Source of the DNA: Georgenia soli
GTDB lineage: Bacteria > Actinomycetota > Actinomycetes > Actinomycetales > Actinomycetaceae
Reading direction: 5' to 3'
DNA: 64,000 nucleotides
NCBI RefSeq assembly: GCF_002563695.1
Contig: NZ_PDJI01000004.1
Coordinates: forward strand, 496,001 to 560,000
Shown here in pieces: positions 12,264-19,536 of this stretch. A program made the translations under genes and the position numbers. The notes below the pieces were generated by a model, which ran no database searches, had not been told where the DNA came from, and worked only from the letters and a program-made list of their open reading frames with translations. How positions within the stretch are numbered: position 1 is the first letter of the stretch; the number at the start of each line of letters is the position of its first letter.

Positions 12264-12452
12264 GATCTGCCCTTTCCGGCCCCCCTCGCCTCATTTCGCC
12301 CAAGGTAACTCACGGAAACGGGAGCCGTCCGCAAAACCGTTACCGAGCTGTGGATCAGGCGGGCACCAGCTGTCACCGAACGGTGGAACGGCCGTCCGTA
12401 ACGTTCTTACCAAGCCTTCCGGACCACCACAGCACCGAATCGGAGAAGACCC

Positions 12453-13043
12453 ATGAACGCTACCGCCACCACCGCCAGGCCCGCCCGCCGGGGTCGCCGC
12501 GTCCTCGTCCCGCTCGCCACCCTCCTCGCCGCCGGCGCCGTCGCCGTCGGGTCGGGTGCTACTTTCACGTCGACGTCCCAGAACACGGTCAGCGCCGTCA
12601 CGTCGGGCACGCTGGAGCAGTCGAACTCCGCCGAGGGCAAGGCAATCTTCGAGCTCACCAACATGAAGCCGGGCGACACGGTCACCGGTCAGCTGACCCT
12701 CACGAACACCGGTTCCCTCGACGCCGCCTTCTCCCTCGTGGAGGAGAGCTCGACCAACGGGTTCTCGAACGACAACCTCACGCTGACGATCACCGACAAG
12801 GCCAACGGCGCCCAGATCTACAGCGGTAACTTCGGCGGACTCAATGACGGCGCGAAGACCCCGCTCGGCACCTTCAAGAAGGACGATGCCCGCACGTACG
12901 TCTTCACGGTGACGCTCAAGGACTCCGCCCTTAACACGGACCAGGGGAAGGCTGCGAGCGCCACGTACCGCTGGGACTCCGTGCAGCTCGGCGCCGAGAA
13001 GACCAACTTCGTCGACGGCCTCCTCGCCGCTGCCGGCAACTGA
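12453..13043 (+). CDS. TasA/camelysin-family secreted protein
   Basis: 196 residues with a twin-Arg-like basic start, a hydrophobic signal segment (about residues 20-38) and the motif ATFTSTSQNTVSAV right after it. This is typical of proteins processed by SipW-type signal peptidases. The mature part is a small beta-rich domain (FELTNMKPGDTVTGQLTLTNTGS, then TYVFTVTLKDSA) like TasA and camelysin. In Bacillus, TasA assembles into extracellular matrix fibres after cleavage by SipW; a comparable structural role is inferred. The peptidase gene is directly downstream. The ATG at 12453 lies 10 nt after GGAGAAG. No sortase motif or Cys. Confidence 0.82.
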   Translation: MNATATTARPARRGRRVLVPLATLLAAGAVAVGSGATFTSTSQNTVSAVTSGTLEQSNSAEGKAIFELTNMKPGDTVTGQLTLTNTGSLDAAFSLVEESSTNGFSNDNLTLTITDKANGAQIYSGNFGGLNDGAKTPLGTFKKDDARTYVFTVTLKDSALNTDQGKAASATYRWDSVQLGAEKTNFVDGLLAAAGN

Positions 13044-13059
13044 CTCGCGGGCCGCTGAC

Positions 13060-13092
13060 CGGTCGGTAGCGCCCCCCTGACGCTACCGGCCG
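13060..13092 (+). terminator. Hairpin 1 between tasA-like and sipW-like genes
   Basis: Arms 13060-13071 and 13081-13092 form a 12-bp stem with one G-U pair and a 9-nt loop, starting 16 nt after the tasA-like stop. No T-tract. Could attenuate transcription or stabilise the upstream mRNA 3' end. Confidence 0.6.
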
Positions 13093-13108
13093 CGCAGCCC
13101 GCACTCCC

Positions 13109-13138
13109 GGCCGGCCCGCTCCCTCCGGCGGGCCGGCC
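13109..13138 (+). terminator. Hairpin 2 between tasA-like and sipW-like genes
   Basis: Perfect 11-bp stem (13109-13119 with 13128-13138), loop of 8 nt, 30 nt before the peptidase start codon. With the first hairpin it makes a double-stem element inside the presumed operon. Confidence 0.6.
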
Positions 13139-13168
13139 AAACCTCCAGAAGACTCCCAGGAGCCCGAG

Positions 13169-13753
13169 ATGACCATCACCGCCATCCGCACCTCCCGCAC
13201 CGCGCCGCGTCGAGCCCCCGGGCTCTCGGGCGCACTCCCCCAGGTCGGGAACGTGCTGCTGGTCGCGATCATGGTCGTCGCAGCGATCTACCTGCTGCCC
13301 GGGCTCCTGGGGTACCAGCGTTACGTCATCACCGGCGGTTCGATGTCCGGCACGTTCGAGAAGGGCTCCATCGCCTTCGAGCGCACGGTTCCCGTCGCGG
13401 CGCTCGAGGTCGGCGACGTCATCACCTACATGCCGCCCGCGGACTCCGGCGTCGACAACCTCGTCACCCACCGCATCAGCGAGATCACCACGGGCGAGAA
13501 CGGCACCCCGCTCTTGCGCACCAAGGGCGACGCCAACGCCGACGTCGACCCGTGGGCCTTCCAGCTGGTCGACGATCTGCAGCCGGTCGTCTCGTTCACG
13601 GTGCCCTACCTCGGCTACGTCTTCATGGCGCTCGCGGACCCCACGGTCCGCGTCCTCGTGATCGGCGTCCCGGCCGGCCTCGTGGCCCTGCGCAGCCTCG
13701 TCGACGTCGTCCGTGCCCTCCGCGGCGGGCACGGCACGGAGGTGGCGGCGTGA
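13169..13753 (+). CDS. sipW: SipW-type (ER-like) signal peptidase I
   Basis: 194 residues. An N-terminal membrane helix (about 25-46) is followed by the catalytic Ser motif GGSMSGTF (Ser58). In place of the usual catalytic Lys is VTHRI (His101), the Ser/His arrangement of the archaeal/eukaryotic SPC and Bacillus SipW subgroup. A second hydrophobic segment near 158-182 anchors the C-terminus. It should cleave the TasA-like protein upstream and the Ig-repeat protein downstream, both of which carry AFTST-type motifs after their signal sequences. Its stop overlaps the downstream start (GTGA), so the genes are translationally coupled. Confidence 0.88.
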   Translation: MTITAIRTSRTAPRRAPGLSGALPQVGNVLLVAIMVVAAIYLLPGLLGYQRYVITGGSMSGTFEKGSIAFERTVPVAALEVGDVITYMPPADSGVDNLVTHRISEITTGENGTPLLRTKGDANADVDPWAFQLVDDLQPVVSFTVPYLGYVFMALADPTVRVLVIGVPAGLVALRSLVDVVRALRGGHGTEVAA

Positions 13754-15561
13754 CCAGGTTCCGGCTCCTCGTCCTGCTCGTCACGACCGTCCTGGTCGTG
13801 GCGGCAGGACGTCCCGCGTTCTCCACCGCGGCCTTCACGTCGACGACGACGCACGCGCCCTCCACCGTCGTCGCCGCCCCGGACTGGACTCCCCCGACCG
13901 TCTCGCTGCGTGCGCCGGCCGTCCCCTCCCAGAACTCCGTCACGCTCACCGCGGACGCCGCCGACGGCGAGACCGGGGTCGCGTCCGTGACGATCGAGTT
14001 CCTGCCCGTCAACGGCTCCGCCTGGACGACCGTGTGCACCGTGACGACCGCGCCGTACAGCTGCGCGTGGGACACGACGAAGGTCGGCGACGACGGTTAC
14101 AGCCTTCGCGCCCGCGCGACCGACCGCGCCGGCTACTCCGCCGTCTCCGACACCGTGCGCACCACCGTGGCGAACAAGCTGCTCGTGGTCCTGGCCGAGC
14201 CGGGCGACATCGTCCGCGGCACCGTGGCGCTGAGCGCGACGCTGTACAACGCGACCGGCGGCGTCACCTACGCCGTGCGTATCGAGTACGCACCCGCCGG
14301 CACGACGGGCTGGAAGGCCGTCTGCCCCAGCAGGACCTCCGCCCCGTACACGTGCGCCTGGAACACCACCAGCGGCGTCAGCAACGACGAGTACGACCTG
14401 CGGGCCGTCGCGCTCGCCGGCAACACCGTCGTGGCCACCTCCGACGTCGTCCCCAACGTCCTCGTGGACAACGAGCTGCCGAAGGTGACGATGAGCGACC
14501 CGGGCACCCCCCTCAGCGGCACCCGCACGTTCCAGGCCACCGCCACGGACGACGTCTCCGGCATCGCCACGGTGACCCTGCAGGCACAGCCGGCCGGCGG
14601 CGCCTGGACGGACCTCTGCACGCGCACCGCCGTGCCGTACTCGTGCCGTTTCGACACCACCACCCTGACGGACGGGACCTACTCCTTCCGGGCCGTCGCG
14701 ACCGACGCCGCGGGGAACGTGACCAGCTCGGCCGCGGTGACGAACCGCGTGGTCGACAACAAGGTCTCCTCCGTGTCCCTCGAGGACCCGGGCGCCTTCC
14801 TCACCGGGACGGTCACCCTGCGGGCGGCCGCGAGCTCCACCGCCGGCGTCCGCTCCGTCACGATCCAGCGCGCCCCCGCCGGCACGACCACCTGGACGGA
14901 CGTGTGCACCGCGGCCACGGCCCCGTACACGTGCGCCTGGAGCACCGTCGGCGTGACCAACGGGCTCTACGACCTGCGCGCCGTCCTCGTGGACGGGACC
15001 GGAGCGACCACCACGTCGGCCACCGTCGCCGGCCGCCAGGTCGACAACCTCCCCCTCCGCGGGCTCGACATCCAGGCGACCAACGGCGGCCCGGCCGCCG
15101 GACGGCTGGACGCGGGCGACACCATCACCTACACGTTCAGCCAGCAGGTCAACCCCGCCACGATCCTCGCCGGATGGACGGGCGGCGGCGTCGACGTCAC
15201 TCTCCGCCTCCGCGACGGCAACCTCCTCGGGCTGGGCAACTCGGGCGACACCATCGACATCCAGCTCGCGGGCTCCACCGTCAACCTCGGCTCGGTCGTC
15301 CTCAACGGCGACTACCTGAAGAAGAACACCGCCACCGCGACGGCGAGGATGACCGCCACCACGGTCACCGTGAACGGCACGGCCCGCACGGTGGTCACCG
15401 TCGTCCTGCTCGCCACCCCCAGCCCGAGCGGTCAGCTCCGCACGCCTACCACGGGCGCCCACATGGTCTGGACCCCCTCCGCCGCGGTGCAGAGCCTCGC
15501 CGGTGTCTCCTCGTCCACCGCCCCCGTGACCGAGACCGGAACGCTGGACAAGGACTTCTGA
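13750..15561 (+). CDS. Secreted protein with four Cys-paired Ig-like repeats
   Basis: 603 residues. A signal helix (4-20) precedes FSTAAFTSTTTHAPS, a SipW-type signal motif, then WTPPTVSL. Four Ig/fibronectin-like repeats of about 96 residues follow (about 48-140, 145-238, 243-335, 340-432). Each ends in C-x8/9-C then W/F-x-T and Y-x-L/F-R-A; cysteine pairs are at 96/105, 192/202, 290/299 and 386/395, suggesting a disulfide per repeat. The C-terminal domain (437-603, GDTITYTFSQQVNP) is beta-rich and of unrecognised family. No LPXTG or membrane anchor. Likely an adhesin or accessory matrix component. GTG 13750 overlaps the sipW stop. Confidence 0.8.
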   Translation: MTRFRLLVLLVTTVLVVAAGRPAFSTAAFTSTTTHAPSTVVAAPDWTPPTVSLRAPAVPSQNSVTLTADAADGETGVASVTIEFLPVNGSAWTTVCTVTTAPYSCAWDTTKVGDDGYSLRARATDRAGYSAVSDTVRTTVANKLLVVLAEPGDIVRGTVALSATLYNATGGVTYAVRIEYAPAGTTGWKAVCPSRTSAPYTCAWNTTSGVSNDEYDLRAVALAGNTVVATSDVVPNVLVDNELPKVTMSDPGTPLSGTRTFQATATDDVSGIATVTLQAQPAGGAWTDLCTRTAVPYSCRFDTTTLTDGTYSFRAVATDAAGNVTSSAAVTNRVVDNKVSSVSLEDPGAFLTGTVTLRAAASSTAGVRSVTIQRAPAGTTTWTDVCTAATAPYTCAWSTVGVTNGLYDLRAVLVDGTGATTTSATVAGRQVDNLPLRGLDIQATNGGPAAGRLDAGDTITYTFSQQVNPATILAGWTGGGVDVTLRLRDGNLLGLGNSGDTIDIQLAGSTVNLGSVVLNGDYLKKNTATATARMTATTVTVNGTARTVVTVVLLATPSPSGQLRTPTTGAHMVWTPSAAVQSLAGVSSSTAPVTETGTLDKDF

Positions 15562-16031
15562 TGCACCGCTCCCCCACCCCCCTCGCGCGGTCCGCGGCCG
15601 CCGCCGGCGCCGCCCTCGCCGTCGCCAGCCTCGTCCGCGTCTCCTCGGCGGGCTACCTCTCGCTGCTGCTGGGCGTCATGGGGCTGGTCGGTGCCCTCGC
15701 GGCGGTCAAGCTGTGGCGGGACGGCAGCTTCGAGGCGCGGCTCCTGACGACGCTCGTCGCGGCGGGCTCGCTGCTGGGCACCGTGCTGCGTGCCACGCTG
15801 GGCCTGCCGGGCATCGGCCACCTGACGGTCGGCTGGTGGGAGCTGCTGGCCGCGGTTCTCGCCGTCGCCACGCTGGCGCTCCTGCTCGCCGACCGCCTCC
15901 GGCGCGGACGCGCGCCCGGAGTACCTTCGGACGGTCGTCGCCCCTATGCTCGGTCCCGTGCAGCCGACCGTGCTCATCGTGGAGGACGACGACGGGATCG
16001 CGCTCCCGCTCGTCCGGACCCTCGGCCGTGA
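15561..16031 (+). CDS. Small four-helix membrane protein
   Basis: 156 residues with about four hydrophobic segments (residues about 9-25, 31-48, 59-78, 89-112) and a basic C-terminal tail. No family recognised. Its ATG overlaps the stop of the Ig-repeat gene (TGATG), so it is coupled to the secretion locus. The last ~74 nt overlap the response regulator gene in another frame. Position suggests an accessory role in the surface-protein locus, but sequence gives no function. Confidence 0.65.
   Translation: MHRSPTPLARSAAAAGAALAVASLVRVSSAGYLSLLLGVMGLVGALAAVKLWRDGSFEARLLTTLVAAGSLLGTVLRATLGLPGIGHLTVGWWELLAAVLAVATLALLLADRLRRGRAPGVPSDGRRPYARSRAADRAHRGGRRRDRAPARPDPRP
15945..15950 (+). promoter_or_regulatory. 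-10 hexamer TATGCT, leaderless start of response regulator
   Basis: TATGCT lies 7 nt before the GTG at 15958, inside the 3' end of the preceding membrane protein gene. It argues for GTG 15958 over the ATG at 15946 and for a promoter that separates the two-component genes from the secretion genes. Confidence 0.6.
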
Positions 16032-16674
16032 GGGTTACGCCGTCGAACGCGTCGCCGAGGGTCTGCCCGCGATCGAGCGGGTGGCCGCCGGCGGCGTGCA
16101 GCTGATCATCCTCGACCTGGGCCTGCCGGACGTCGACGGCCTCGAGGTGTGCCACCGCGTCCGGGCGGACGGCTACGACGACGGCATCATCATCCTCACC
16201 GCCCGCGGCGAGGAGCTCGACCGCGTCGTGGGCCTGGACGTCGGCGCCGACGACTACCTGGCCAAGCCGTTCGCGCTCTCCGAGCTGCTCGCCCGGGCCC
16301 GCGCCCTGCTGCGCCGCAGTGCCCGCATGGCCGCCGCCCGGCCAACGGCCGCCCCCACGCAGGAGCCCGCCCCCGAGCGGCCGCCGAGCCTGCGGGTCGA
16401 CCCGCGCTCGCGGCGGGCGTGGGTCGACGGCGAGGAGCTGGCGCTGAGCTCGAAGGAGTTCGACCTCCTCGCGCTGCTGGACTCCGAGCGCGGCGCCGTG
16501 CTGACCCGGGAGACCCTCATGGACAGGGTCTGGGACGAGAACTGGTACGGCTCCACCAAGACCCTCGACGTCACCGTCGGCCGGCTGCGCCAGAAGCTCG
16601 AGTCGAGCGGCGCCCAGGCGCGGGTCGTGGCGGTACGCGGGGTCGGGTTCCGCCTCGAGGACGTCGATGCGTGA
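15958..16674 (+). CDS. OmpR/PhoB-family response regulator
   Basis: 238 residues. Receiver domain with the acidic pair ED near residues 9-11, phospho-acceptor Asp53 in ILDLGLPDVDG, Thr81 and Lys103 (YLAKPF). A Pro/Ala linker (about 125-145) is followed by a winged-helix DNA-binding domain (SSKEFDLLALLDSERGAV, then TLDVTVGRLRQKL and VRGVGFRLE). It receives phosphate from the histidine kinase encoded downstream with an 8-nt overlap. The neighbouring TasA/SipW/Ig genes are obvious candidate targets, by position only. Confidence 0.93.
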   Translation: MQPTVLIVEDDDGIALPLVRTLGREGYAVERVAEGLPAIERVAAGGVQLIILDLGLPDVDGLEVCHRVRADGYDDGIIILTARGEELDRVVGLDVGADDYLAKPFALSELLARARALLRRSARMAAARPTAAPTQEPAPERPPSLRVDPRSRRAWVDGEELALSSKEFDLLALLDSERGAVLTRETLMDRVWDENWYGSTKTLDVTVGRLRQKLESSGAQARVVAVRGVGFRLEDVDA

Positions 16675-17995
16675 CCGGCTGCTCGCCGCGTTCGTCACCC
16701 TGACGGTCCTGATCGTCGCCCTGTACGGCATCCCCCGCGCCTACCAGGTCGCGGGCATGGTCCGGGCCCAGGAGGAGCGCAAGATCGAGCGCTCGGTGGA
16801 CCTCGTCGCCGTCGTCCTCGCCGAGCACCTGGCGGACGGTGACGTGGTGACCGAGGAGTATCTCGAGCCGATGCTCAACCAGGCCGAGACCTTGCGCTAC
16901 GTCGCCCCCGACGGCACCGAGACCGTCGCCGGCCCCCGCTTCAACCCCGCCCCGTCGGACATCGTCATGAGCCGCGACGTCGACGGCGGCGGCACCGTGA
17001 CGCTCACCCGGGCGGGCGGGCTGATCGACGAGCGGGTCTCCGAGGCCGTGTACCCGCTGGTGGCGATCGGTGTGGGGCTCGTGCTCGTCTCGGCCGGTGT
17101 CGCCGTCGTCGTCGCCCGCCGCCTGGCCCGGCCGTTCGGCGAGCTCGCCGCGAGCGCCGAGAGGCTCGGCCGCGGGCAGTTCGACCTGGACGTCCCGCGC
17201 TACGCCGTCCCGGAGGCGGACCAGATCGGGGCGTCCATGCGTACCGCGGCCGAGCGGCTGGCGGACGTGGTGCGCCGGGAGCGGGAGTTCTCCGCCAACG
17301 CCTCCCACCAGCTGCGCACCCCCGTGACGGCGCTGCGCCTGCAGCTGGAGGACATCTCGCTGTGGCCGGAGACCCCGGAGTCGGTGCGCGAGGAGCTCCA
17401 GCACTCGCTCGGCGAGCTGGACCGGCTCTCCGGCGCCGTCACCGAGCTCCTCGCGATGTCGCGCGGGCGCCTGACGGCCTCGGCGGTCGAGCTGGACCTG
17501 GCCGACCTCGTCGACGCCGCCGTCGCTCGCTGGTCCGTCCTGGCGCCCGAGGGTCGGCGGGTGGTCCCGGACGCGGGCGGCCCGGTGCCGTGCCAGGTGG
17601 CCGCCGGCCCCGTGGGCCAGATCCTCGACGTCCTCGTGGACAACGCCCTCAAGCACGGCGCCGGCACGGTCACGGTGTCAGCCCGGGACGAGGGCACGCA
17701 CCTCGCCGTGGCGGTGGAGAACGAGGGGGCGCGGCCGACGTCGAGCGACCTCTTCCGCCGTCGGGTCTCGGGGAGCTCCTCGGGCGGGGAGGGCATCGGG
17801 CTCGCGGTCGCACGCGACCTGGCCGGCGCGCTCGGGGGCCGGCTCGCGCTGGCGCCGGGCACGACGACGGCGTTCGTGCTGGAGCTCCCCCGCTCCCCCG
17901 CCCGGGATGCCTCAGGCGGTCACGGTGTCTCGGGCACCATCTCGATGGCACCGCAGGGGCACTCCTCCACGCACAGGCCGCAGCCCTTGCAGTAG
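16667..17995 (+). CDS. Membrane sensor histidine kinase
   Basis: 442 residues. TM1 about 5-22, an extracytoplasmic sensor region about 25-125, TM2 about 128-150, then HAMP. The DHp domain has the phospho-acceptor His214 in NASHQLRTPV; the ATPase domain has the N box DNALKHG (325-331) and G box GGEGIGLAVARDL. The last ~28 residues are coded in DNA that is antisense to the ferredoxin domain of the convergent POR subunit gene, so the stop codons overlap by 76 nt. The kinase core ends before that tail, which may be dispensable. Cognate partner is the overlapping response regulator. Confidence 0.92.
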   Translation: MRDRLLAAFVTLTVLIVALYGIPRAYQVAGMVRAQEERKIERSVDLVAVVLAEHLADGDVVTEEYLEPMLNQAETLRYVAPDGTETVAGPRFNPAPSDIVMSRDVDGGGTVTLTRAGGLIDERVSEAVYPLVAIGVGLVLVSAGVAVVVARRLARPFGELAASAERLGRGQFDLDVPRYAVPEADQIGASMRTAAERLADVVRREREFSANASHQLRTPVTALRLQLEDISLWPETPESVREELQHSLGELDRLSGAVTELLAMSRGRLTASAVELDLADLVDAAVARWSVLAPEGRRVVPDAGGPVPCQVAAGPVGQILDVLVDNALKHGAGTVTVSARDEGTHLAVAVENEGARPTSSDLFRRRVSGSSSGGEGIGLAVARDLAGALGGRLALAPGTTTAFVLELPRSPARDASGGHGVSGTISMAPQGHSSTHRPQPLQ

Positions 17996-19536
17996 TCGTA
18001 GTCGATCTCGTACGTGCCGTCCGGGTGCTTGATGATGGCGTTGTCCGGGCAGACCCCGAAGCAGTTGTCGCAGCCGAAGCAGTTGCCGCAGGACATGCAC
18101 CGGCGCGCCTCGAACAGGGCCGTCTCGGCCGTCAGGCCCTGGACCACCTCGTCGAACGTGCCGGCACGGCGCGGGCCCTCCAGGCGTGGGCGCACCTGGT
18201 GCGGGGCGTCGGCGTAGTACCAGGTGTTCAGCGCCCCGAACTCGGCGTCCGGCGCGGGCGGCGCCGCCTCGGAGGCCACGCCGTGCAGGTAGGCGTCGAT
18301 GTTGCGCGCGGCCCGTTTACCGTGCCCGACACCCACGGTCACCGTCCGCTCGGACGGCACCATGTCCCCGCCGGCGAACAGGCCCGGGTGGCCGGTCATC
18401 AGGCGCTCGTCGACGGCGACCACACCGTCCTCGACCACGAGCCCGGACACGCCCTCGACGAGCGAGAGGTCGGCCTCCTGGCCCAGCGCGAGGACGACGG
18501 AGTCGGCCTCCAGGTCCTCCAGGACGCCCGTGGGCCGGGGGAAGCCGGTCTCGTCGAGCTCCATCTTCTCGATGGTCAGCCTGCCCTCGTCGGCGTGGGC
18601 GATGGTGGAGAGCCACTTCATCTGCACGCCCTCCTCGAGGGCCTCGACGACCTCGGAGTCGTGGGCGGGCATCCGCTCGCGGGTGCGCCGGTAGACGATG
18701 ATCGCCTCCTCGGCGCCGAGCCGCCTGGCGGTGCGCGCGGCGTCGACCGCGGTGTTCCCGCCGCCGTAGACCACCACGCGACGGCCCAGCTGCGGGGCGT
18801 CGGCGTCCTCGACGTCGCGCAGCACCTGGACGGCGTCGAGGATGCGCGCCGCCTCCCCGGCGGGGACGTACGCGCGCCGGCCGATCTGGGCGCCGACGGC
18901 CAGCAGGACGGCGTCGAACCTCTCCAGGTCCGGCTGCACGGTGGTGACGCGGGTGTCGAGCTCGAGGGTGACGCCCATGTCGACGATGCGCTGGATCTCG
19001 GCGTCGAGGACGTCACGCGGGAGCCGGTAGGCGGGGATGCCGTAGCGCATCATGCCGCCGGGCCGGGGCGCGGCGTCGCGCAGGGTGACGTCGTGGCCGA
19101 GCAGGCGCAGGTGGTAGGCGGCGGCGAGCCCGGTGGGCCCGGACCCGACCACCAGGACGTGCTTCCCCGACGGCGGAGCGGTCACCGGCACCGTCCAGCC
19201 CTGCCGGATCGCCTCGTCGCCGAGGAACCGCTCGACGGCGTTGATGCCGACGGCCTCGTCGAGCTGGCCGCGGTTGCAGGCGGTCTGGCACGGGTGGTAG
19301 CAGACGCGGCCCATGACGGCGGGCAGCGGGTTGTCGGCCATGAGGGTGCGCCACGCCCGCTCGTAGTGGCCGTCCTCGGCGTCGTAGAGCCACTGCTGGA
19401 TGTTCTCCCCGGCCGGGCACGCCTTGTTGCACGGCGGGAGGAAGTCCCGGTACACGGGCCGCTCCACCCGCCAGGCGCCGGTGCGGTTGGCGAGCGAGGA
19501 CCCGAGGTCCAGGGTGATGGCGAACGGCTTGTCCAT
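17920..19536 (-). CDS. GltD-like FAD/NAD(P) oxidoreductase fused to 2x[4Fe-4S] ferredoxin, POR electron-transfer subunit
   Basis: 538 residues. The N-terminal Fe-S region of the GltD type (CNKACPAGENIQQW, CYHPCQTACNRG) precedes an FAD-binding Rossmann motif (VGSGPTGLAAAYHL) and an NAD(P)-binding motif (VVYGGGNTAVDAARTARRLG). A GGDM motif lies near the FAD C-terminal strand. The C-terminal ferredoxin domain has two Cys clusters (CMSCGNCFGCDNC ... CP and CKGCGLCVEECPCG). Last gene of the POR operon, one base after the beta-subunit stop, with GAGGAGG upstream. It probably passes electrons between the 2-oxoacid oxidoreductase and NAD(P). Its 3' end overlaps the convergent histidine kinase gene by 76 nt. 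Confidence 0.87.
   Translation of the reverse strand: MDKPFAITLDLGSSLANRTGAWRVERPVYRDFLPPCNKACPAGENIQQWLYDAEDGHYERAWRTLMADNPLPAVMGRVCYHPCQTACNRGQLDEAVGINAVERFLGDEAIRQGWTVPVTAPPSGKHVLVVGSGPTGLAAAYHLRLLGHDVTLRDAAPRPGGMMRYGIPAYRLPRDVLDAEIQRIVDMGVTLELDTRVTTVQPDLERFDAVLLAVGAQIGRRAYVPAGEAARILDAVQVLRDVEDADAPQLGRRVVVYGGGNTAVDAARTARRLGAEEAIIVYRRTRERMPAHDSEVVEALEEGVQMKWLSTIAHADEGRLTIEKMELDETGFPRPTGVLEDLEADSVVLALGQEADLSLVEGVSGLVVEDGVVAVDERLMTGHPGLFAGGDMVPSERTVTVGVGHGKRAARNIDAYLHGVASEAAPPAPDAEFGALNTWYYADAPHQVRPRLEGPRRAGTFDEVVQGLTAETALFEARRCMSCGNCFGCDNCFGVCPDNAIIKHPDGTYEIDYDYCKGCGLCVEECPCGAIEMVPETP

What the first reader, a model, noticed from the sequence alone, without database searches (positions are those of the whole stretch)
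12453..17995. TasA-like / SipW / Ig-repeat / membrane protein locus with its own two-component system in an actinobacterium
A TasA-camelysin-type protein, a Ser/His SipW-type peptidase and a large Ig-repeat protein with a matching signal motif are tightly linked, coupled to a small four-helix membrane protein, and followed by an overlapping response regulator and sensor kinase. TasA-SipW is known from Bacillus matrix fibres; the Ig-repeat partner, the membrane protein and the dedicated regulators look like a distinct surface-fibre or matrix system. This is my best candidate for an undescribed system.
Basis: partly seen in the sequence, partly recalled or inferred. Interest (0 to 1): 0.75.

Follow-up and report, generated by a model that had tools for sequence, protein, structure and literature searches.

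The report
Regulated TasA-type fibre locus in actinomycetes
Several genera of actinobacteria carry a compact gene set that appears to build a protein fibre on the cell surface, related to the matrix fibre of Bacillus biofilms, with its own sensor-regulator pair and a matching DNA switch in front of the genes for the secreted proteins.

Summary
Window 12453-17995 encodes a TasA/camelysin-family protein, an ER-type (Ser58/His101) SipW-like signal peptidase, a four-Ig-domain secreted protein with a similar signal motif, a small membrane protein, an OmpR-type response regulator (RR) and a histidine kinase (HK). Scanning named genomes with the peptidase alone gave 42 loci: TasA lies beside it in 42, Ig in 41, RR in 39, HK in 37, membrane protein in 31, all six in 30. 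The 39 loci with TasA, peptidase, Ig and RR span 13 named genera. A matrix built from TasA promoters hits above 15 bits 71 times in 738 kb, each time before TasA (42) or Ig (29), in all 39 loci with the RR and none of 3 without. A relative (G133) lacks promoter and module interior through two deletions. The predicted TasA fold best matches the Bacillus TasA fibre. Best reading: a donor-strand-type surface fibre with a dedicated two-component system. Linkage and switch are well supported; fibre formation, processing and signal are inferred. New variant of a known kind.

The parts
12339..12393 (+). Tandem array of five 11-bp direct repeats (12339 GTTACCGAGCT, 12350 GTGGATCAGGC, 12361 GGGCACCAGCT, 12372 GTCACCGAACG, 12383 GTGGAACGGCC), predicted operator of the response regulator
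   Evidence: (score 34-37 bits when left out of the matrix, next best in 64 kb about -2)
12399..12404 (+). -10 element TAACGT of the tasA promoter, 16 nt after the start of the last repeat
12453..13043 (+). TasA/camelysin-family secreted protein, 196 aa, predicted fibre subunit
   Evidence: PF12389 above cutoff; fold best matches 8aur TasA fibre
13059..13138 (+). Two strong hairpins between tasA and sipW (about 13059-13090 and 13109-13138), possible attenuator; not conserved in strength among relatives
   Evidence: z -5.1 in window, mean z -1.6 over 41 copies (mononucleotide shuffles)
13169..13753 (+). SipW-like ER-type signal peptidase, 194 aa, catalytic Ser58 and His101
   Evidence: TIGR02228 above cutoff; Ser 38 of 39 (one gap) and His 39 of 39
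13750..15561 (+). Secreted protein with four Big_7 Ig domains, low-confidence N-terminal tail, C-terminal domain ending ETGTLDKDF; GTG start
15561..16031 (+). Small membrane protein, no known family; reads on past the stop position of its relatives into the RR gene
15945..15950 (+). -10 element TATGCT of the RR-HK promoter, inside the 3' end of the membrane protein gene
15958..16674 (+). OmpR/PhoB-type response regulator (longest ORF from ATG 15946), predicted leaderless
16667..17995 (+). Membrane histidine kinase with a sensor segment between two membrane segments (5-23, 131-149); 3' end overlaps the convergent gene 17920-19536

Best explanation
A self-contained, regulated surface-fibre module. 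The kinase senses an unknown cell-surface signal and phosphorylates the response regulator, which is made from its own leaderless promoter. The regulator binds the tandem 11-bp array and recruits RNA polymerase to the tasA promoter (in 29 of 39 relatives also to a second promoter before the Ig gene). TasA and the Ig protein are exported with SipW-type signal peptides and released by the dedicated Ser/His peptidase. TasA subunits then polymerise by passing an N-terminal donor strand to the next subunit. The Ig protein, with a similar N-terminal motif and a four-domain stalk, joins the fibre as base or tip (TapA-like starter, or adhesin). The small membrane protein assists at the membrane. Supported here: gene content, linkage, promoter array and its restriction to the two secreted-protein genes, signal motifs, catalytic residues, predicted TasA fold. 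Inferred: phosphorylation and binding, activation rather than repression, cleavage, polymerisation, position of the Ig protein, role of the membrane protein.
For: Linkage in loci picked by the peptidase alone: TasA 42/42, Ig 41/42, RR 39/42, HK 37/42, membrane protein 31/42, all six 30/42. Nesterenkonia (L079, L106) keeps RR-HK divergent, next to the tasA array. Array: GTGG in register in 82 of 102 occurrences; register blocks 2-5 begin GTG/GTT/GGG in 101 of 148 versus mean 12.6, maximum 23 in 1000 shuffles; strict GTGG 54 of 148 versus mean 1.3, maximum 6. All 71 hits above 15 bits lie before TasA or Ig; the Ig sites were not used to build the matrix. Eighteen regions around other TasA- or SipW-type genes reach at most 2.3 bits. 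In regions picked by TasA alone, array >=12 bits in 16 of 17 with the RR (>=300 bits) and 2 of 18 without (cutoffs chosen afterwards; at least 4 of the 17 duplicate loci behind the matrix). OmpR/PhoB-family regulators bind direct repeats 11 bp apart, ArcA up to five (PMC3798270, passages). G133 lacks array plus -10 and the module interior through two deletions. Distances of five module genes correlate (r 0.36-0.78; permutation maxima 0.18-0.26). TasA model: best PDB match is the TasA fibre, with FimA and archaeal filaments among ranks 2-12. Signal motif.
Confidence: 0.62

Rival explanations
1. The Ig-repeat protein is the main product, an adhesin or surface-layer-like coat; TasA is its chaperone or capping partner and no long TasA fibre forms.
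For: The Ig protein is large, with 8 or 9 cysteines in 29 of 40, and its model resembles bacterial adhesin repeats among many Ig-type proteins (6xi3, 2yn3). In 29 of 39 loci it has its own array promoter.
Against: TasA stands first behind an array in all 39 loci with the RR, and 3 of them carry two TasA copies; the TasA model matches self-polymerising subunits. Ig length varies, 262 and 311 aa in L075 and L066 against about 600 in most.
Confidence: 0.22
2. TasA acts as a camelysin-type metalloprotease or antimicrobial protein rather than a fibre subunit.
For: Family PF12389 is named Camelysin metallo-endopeptidase.
Against: No HExxH in 40 of 40 TasA copies and no histidine at all in the window copy; the best fold match is a fibre subunit.
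Confidence: 0.04
3. The two-component system controls a wider regulon and merely lies beside the fibre genes.
For: A short 22-base pattern has 2 of 13 matches outside the module in 394 genomes (G497, G437; not examined further), and the full matrix was not run over whole genomes.
Against: 11 of the 13 matches lie in modules by coordinates, while the reversed control pattern has 6 matches; 71 of 71 full-matrix hits in 42 loci are before TasA or Ig.
Confidence: 0.12

Closest known systems
Bacillus subtilis tapA-sipW-tasA matrix operon
   Same: TasA-family secreted subunit, SipW-type peptidase with two secreted partners, tight linkage; predicted fold best matches 8aur. Donor-strand assembly, SipW cleavage of TasA and TapA, and SinR control of that operon: PMC9674648, passages read.
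   Different: Ig-repeat protein in place of TapA, extra membrane protein, RR-HK with 11-bp array instead of SinR; below both Bacillus equivalog cutoffs.
Bacillus cereus TasA-CalY-CapP filament system (PMC13082335, abstract and section list read)
   Same: Regulated, sortase-independent filament assembly with TasA-family subunits.
   Different: The loci here have an Ig-repeat protein and an RR-HK pair; CapP was not searched for.
Archaeal bundling pili of Pyrobaculum (7ueg) and Sulfolobus thread (7pnb)
   Same: Fold neighbours of the TasA model; described as donor-strand-complemented archaeal fibres, one of them TasA-related, in PMC9674648 (passages).
   Different: Only fold-level similarity was tested.
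Other actinobacterial SipW loci with SipW-dependent signal proteins (family names recalled, not from a call)
   Same: SipW-like peptidase with adjacent secreted proteins; two such loci in this genome (L048, L049); L048 also has RR-like and HK-like genes.
   Different: Peptidase 36 and 33% identical, no match to this Ig protein, no array (2.3 and -1.5 bits).

Membership tests
TasA/camelysin family (PF12389) | Profile score above curated cutoff | tested here: met
   34.8 against 22.5 bits
TasA/camelysin family (PF12389) | TasA jelly-roll fold | tested here: met
TasA/camelysin family (PF12389) | Polymerises by donor strand | not testable with these tools
   needs protein or complex prediction
Bacillus TasA equivalog (NF046066) | Score above curated cutoff | tested here: not met
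   22.1 against 450 bits
Camelysin metalloprotease activity | HExxH zinc motif (recalled as the usual motif) | tested here: not met
   0 of 40 copies
ER-type signal peptidase I (TIGR02228) | Profile score above cutoff | tested here: met
   70.2 against 51.85 bits
ER-type signal peptidase I (TIGR02228) | Ser-His catalytic pair instead of Ser-Lys (rule recalled) | tested here: met
   Ser58 38 of 39 (one gap), His101 39 of 39; copies of 200 bits or less left out
Bacillus SipW equivalog (NF046067) | Score above curated cutoff | tested here: not met
   69.9 against 190 bits
OmpR/PhoB response regulators | Receiver plus winged-helix domain | tested here: met
   PF00072 and PF00486
OmpR/PhoB response regulators | Tandem direct repeats 11 bp apart at target promoters | tested here: met
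   sequence only; binding not tested; spacing rule from PMC3798270
Sortase-anchored pili | LPxTG-type C-terminus followed by a membrane segment on the large subunit | tested here: not met
   C-terminal membrane segment in 0 of 40 Ig proteins; LPx[TS][GA] in the last 60 residues in 1 of 40

The most novel reading that the evidence does not exclude
A fibre machine with built-in assembly feedback: the kinase's outer segment reads free or stalled TasA/Ig subunits (or the finished fibre) at the membrane and tunes production of exactly those subunits through the 11-bp array, while the Ig protein starts the fibre by giving the first donor strand. It would be, as far as the searches here show, the first two-component-controlled, sortase-free donor-strand fibre of actinobacteria, moving between chromosomal sites and lineages as one unit.
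Probability: 0.2. Interest if true: 0.82.

Novelty: new variant of a known kind. Interest (0 to 1): 0.62.

Why it matters
TasA fibres are known mainly from Bacillus matrices, with structural cousins in archaea (recalled, and PMC9674648 passages). A conserved, regulated version in actinobacteria would extend donor-strand fibres to another large group, gives a candidate regulator and operator that switch it, and names strains (for example Georgenia ruanii, and species of Knoellia, Aeromicrobium, Nocardioides and Microbacterium) in which surface fibres can be sought. The 11-bp array is a sequence handle for predicting when the fibre is made.

Tried and rejected
Hairpins between tasA and sipW as a conserved attenuator: strong in the window, inconsistent among relatives. 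Conserved C-terminal 'PYA' of the membrane protein (17 of 23 called copies) as a functional motif: rejected, because it encodes the -10 TATGCT of the RR promoter; the Microbacterium and Agromyces copies, whose gene lies elsewhere, lack it. Fold of the Ig C-terminal domain: the whole-protein Foldseek search is filled by generic Ig-type chains, so nothing specific is claimed. A search of the window's genome with a GTGGA pattern at one mismatch found nothing, not even the window's own array, because one repeat reads GTCAC. A best matrix site in L048 lying 68 nt before a secreted-protein gene was checked and is at background (2.3 bits; flank stretches reach 5.8 apart from a second TasA copy). Distance correlation Ig-HK (0.51) higher than Ig-TasA (0.36) was not pursued.

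Rows dropped before counts: 4 of 41 tasA promoters with weak -10 anchors (L085, L089, L091, L092), though one search then found arrays in all four; 5 of 36 called RR genes without a recognisable core; RR and HK hits under 90 bits (three of the 18 'without RR' regions have RR-like hits of 97-209 bits); peptidases of 200 bits or less and uncalled genes. Of 42 TasA places, 40 were covered by the 35 regions fetched; the window's own and G361:3743555 were not. Three of 71 array hits (L076, L078, L095) carried the label 'other'; one search confirms that each lies just before an Ig or TasA start. The triplets counted and the cutoffs of 12 and 15 bits were chosen by me after seeing data. The 42 loci are not independent: 83 of 903 pairs share one or more flanking genes, some through the GAF kinase.
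Full report
WHAT IS THERE. The window lies in a 4.27-Mb genome, GC 0.68-0.78 across the window. One relative of its genus, G107, is Georgenia ruanii JCM 15130, inferred because its contig has the same length, 126,569 bases, as record NZ_VUKE01000014.1. TasA-like 12453-13043 belongs to PF12389 (34.8 bits, cutoff 22.5). The peptidase 13169-13753 passes TIGR02228, ER-type signal peptidase I, but not the Bacillus SipW equivalog. The 603-aa protein 13750-15561 has four Big_7 stretches. The small membrane protein has no family above cutoff. The last two genes are an OmpR-type regulator and a HAMP-HisKA-HATPase kinase.

LINKAGE. I scanned named genomes with the peptidase only (alignment of the window and G. 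ruanii copies) and got 42 loci. Profiles built from their proteins gave: TasA 42 of 42, Ig 41, RR 39, HK 37, membrane protein 31; the five genes other than the membrane protein 37, all six 30. The 39 loci with RR span 13 named genera plus unnamed MAGs; all six genes are seen in 12 named genera. L095 is cut by a contig end, L075 has no detectable kinase, L106 has frame breaks. Three loci from Thermoleophilaceae and Solirubrobacteraceae MAGs have TasA, peptidase and a large secreted protein and no regulators; in one of them (L101) the large protein carries CBM96 and does not match the Ig profile. Two arrangements differ: in three of seven Microbacterium loci and in Agromyces the membrane gene lies between peptidase and Ig, and in Nesterenkonia the RR-HK pair is divergent and abuts the tasA promoter. 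Eleven loci carry an extra kinase beside the module; the three that I scanned have GAF, HisKA and HATPase domains. The window shares no flanking gene with any of the 42 loci at the thresholds used, G. ruanii included, so the module keeps together in different surroundings. Gene distances correlate across 35 sets (r 0.36-0.78, permutation maxima 0.18-0.26).

PREVALENCE AND LOSS. In 151 genomes of the family, TasA was found in 9, the peptidase in 28 (mostly other SipW loci) and the membrane protein in 4. In 394 genomes of the class, 32 have a TasA relative at E <= 1e-10, in 15 of 138 genera. Within the genus (9 genomes) only the window's genome and G. ruanii carry the module. G133 has a remnant at the window's site: relative to the window, 12369-12408 (end of repeat 3, repeats 4 and 5, and the -10) and 12574-17751 (the rest of tasA to late in the kinase gene) are missing; aligned stretches on either side are 75-90% identical. 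Two more genomes (G094, G126) match the downstream flank only from about window 17929 on, with no kinase remnant.

THE SWITCH. Reading the 200 bases before TasA in the relatives showed repeats of GTGGA every 11 bp. Anchoring on the -10 alone, 82 of 102 GTGG words fall in one phase of 11; periods 7-10 and 12-15 give at most 0.33 in one phase against 0.80; register blocks 2-5 begin with GTG/GTT/GGG in 101 of 148 cases, shuffles give mean 12.6 and maximum 23 (37 of 41 promoters). The window's array scores 37 bits when left out of the matrix and 34 when G. ruanii is left out too; the next best site in 64 kb scores about -2. Scanning all 42 loci (738,299 bases, both strands) above 15 bits gave 71 hits: 42 before TasA (all 39 loci with the RR; three have two TasA copies) and 29 before the Ig gene; none elsewhere and none in the 3 loci without RR (three unlabelled hits placed by coordinates and confirmed). 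The Ig sites did not enter the matrix. Eighteen regions around other SipW- or TasA-type genes, fetched, reach at most 2.3 bits. A short pattern over 394 genomes matched 13 times, 11 inside modules by coordinates and 2 elsewhere, with 6 matches for the reversed control. Direct repeats 11 bp apart are how the OmpR/PhoB-family regulator ArcA binds, at many sites with three to five repeats (PMC3798270, passages). The RR itself has a -10 at 5-8 nt (mostly 7 or 8) before its start codon in 31 of 31 testable relatives (25 of 12,600 random positions), which moves the window's RR start to 15958.

MECHANISM. Kinase to regulator to array to TasA (and Ig), export, cleavage by the dedicated peptidase, donor-strand assembly. 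Steps up to the array rest on sequence evidence that I consider strong; cleavage rests on motif and linkage; assembly rests on fold and family. What the kinase senses is unknown. A regulator pair beside a SipW is not unique to this module: L048, another SipW locus of this genome, has RR-like and HK-like genes nearby, but no array.

NOVELTY. Nine full-text searches of the held library found no paper on this actinobacterial locus (I saw listings and abstract starts, and opened only PMC9674648 in passages and PMC13082335 as abstract and section list). Subscription papers and bioRxiv preprints were not covered. I rate it a new variant of the TasA/SipW kind.

Noticed in passing
L048 8845-11144 and L049 7518-10223 (G000:C4 near 1437012 and 2929311): Two further SipW-like peptidases in the same genome, beside two (L048) and three (L049) proteins with hydrophobic N-termini and A-x-W-type motifs; L048 also has RR-like and HK-like genes nearby.
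   Followed up: partly
L155 9219-9773: A SipW-like protein in a divergent TasA-RR-HK locus with array (42 bits) in which the catalytic Ser and His positions read Ala and Arg by eye; its TasA-like partner lacks the A-x-F motif.
   Followed up: partly
L156 8329-9601 and L162 8746-10058: Reduced versions: a TasA-like gene directly followed by the RR, no peptidase found; array weak (12.8 and 5.2 bits).
   Followed up: no
L144 8074-10028 and L147 3738-6438: TasA with array (53 and 52 bits) directly beside HK (L144) or RR-HK (L147), without peptidase or Ig at that place.
   Followed up: partly
L066 6877-8142 and ten other loci: A kinase gene beside the module in 11 of 42 loci, with a GAF domain in the three scanned; a possible second input.
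   Followed up: partly
L101 9435-12739: In a Thermoleophilaceae MAG the large secreted protein carries a CBM96 domain and is followed by a second TasA-like protein.
   Followed up: partly
window 17920-17995: The kinase gene's 3' end overlaps the convergent gene 17920-19536; the window kinase (442 aa) is longer than most relatives (about 410 aa).
   Followed up: no
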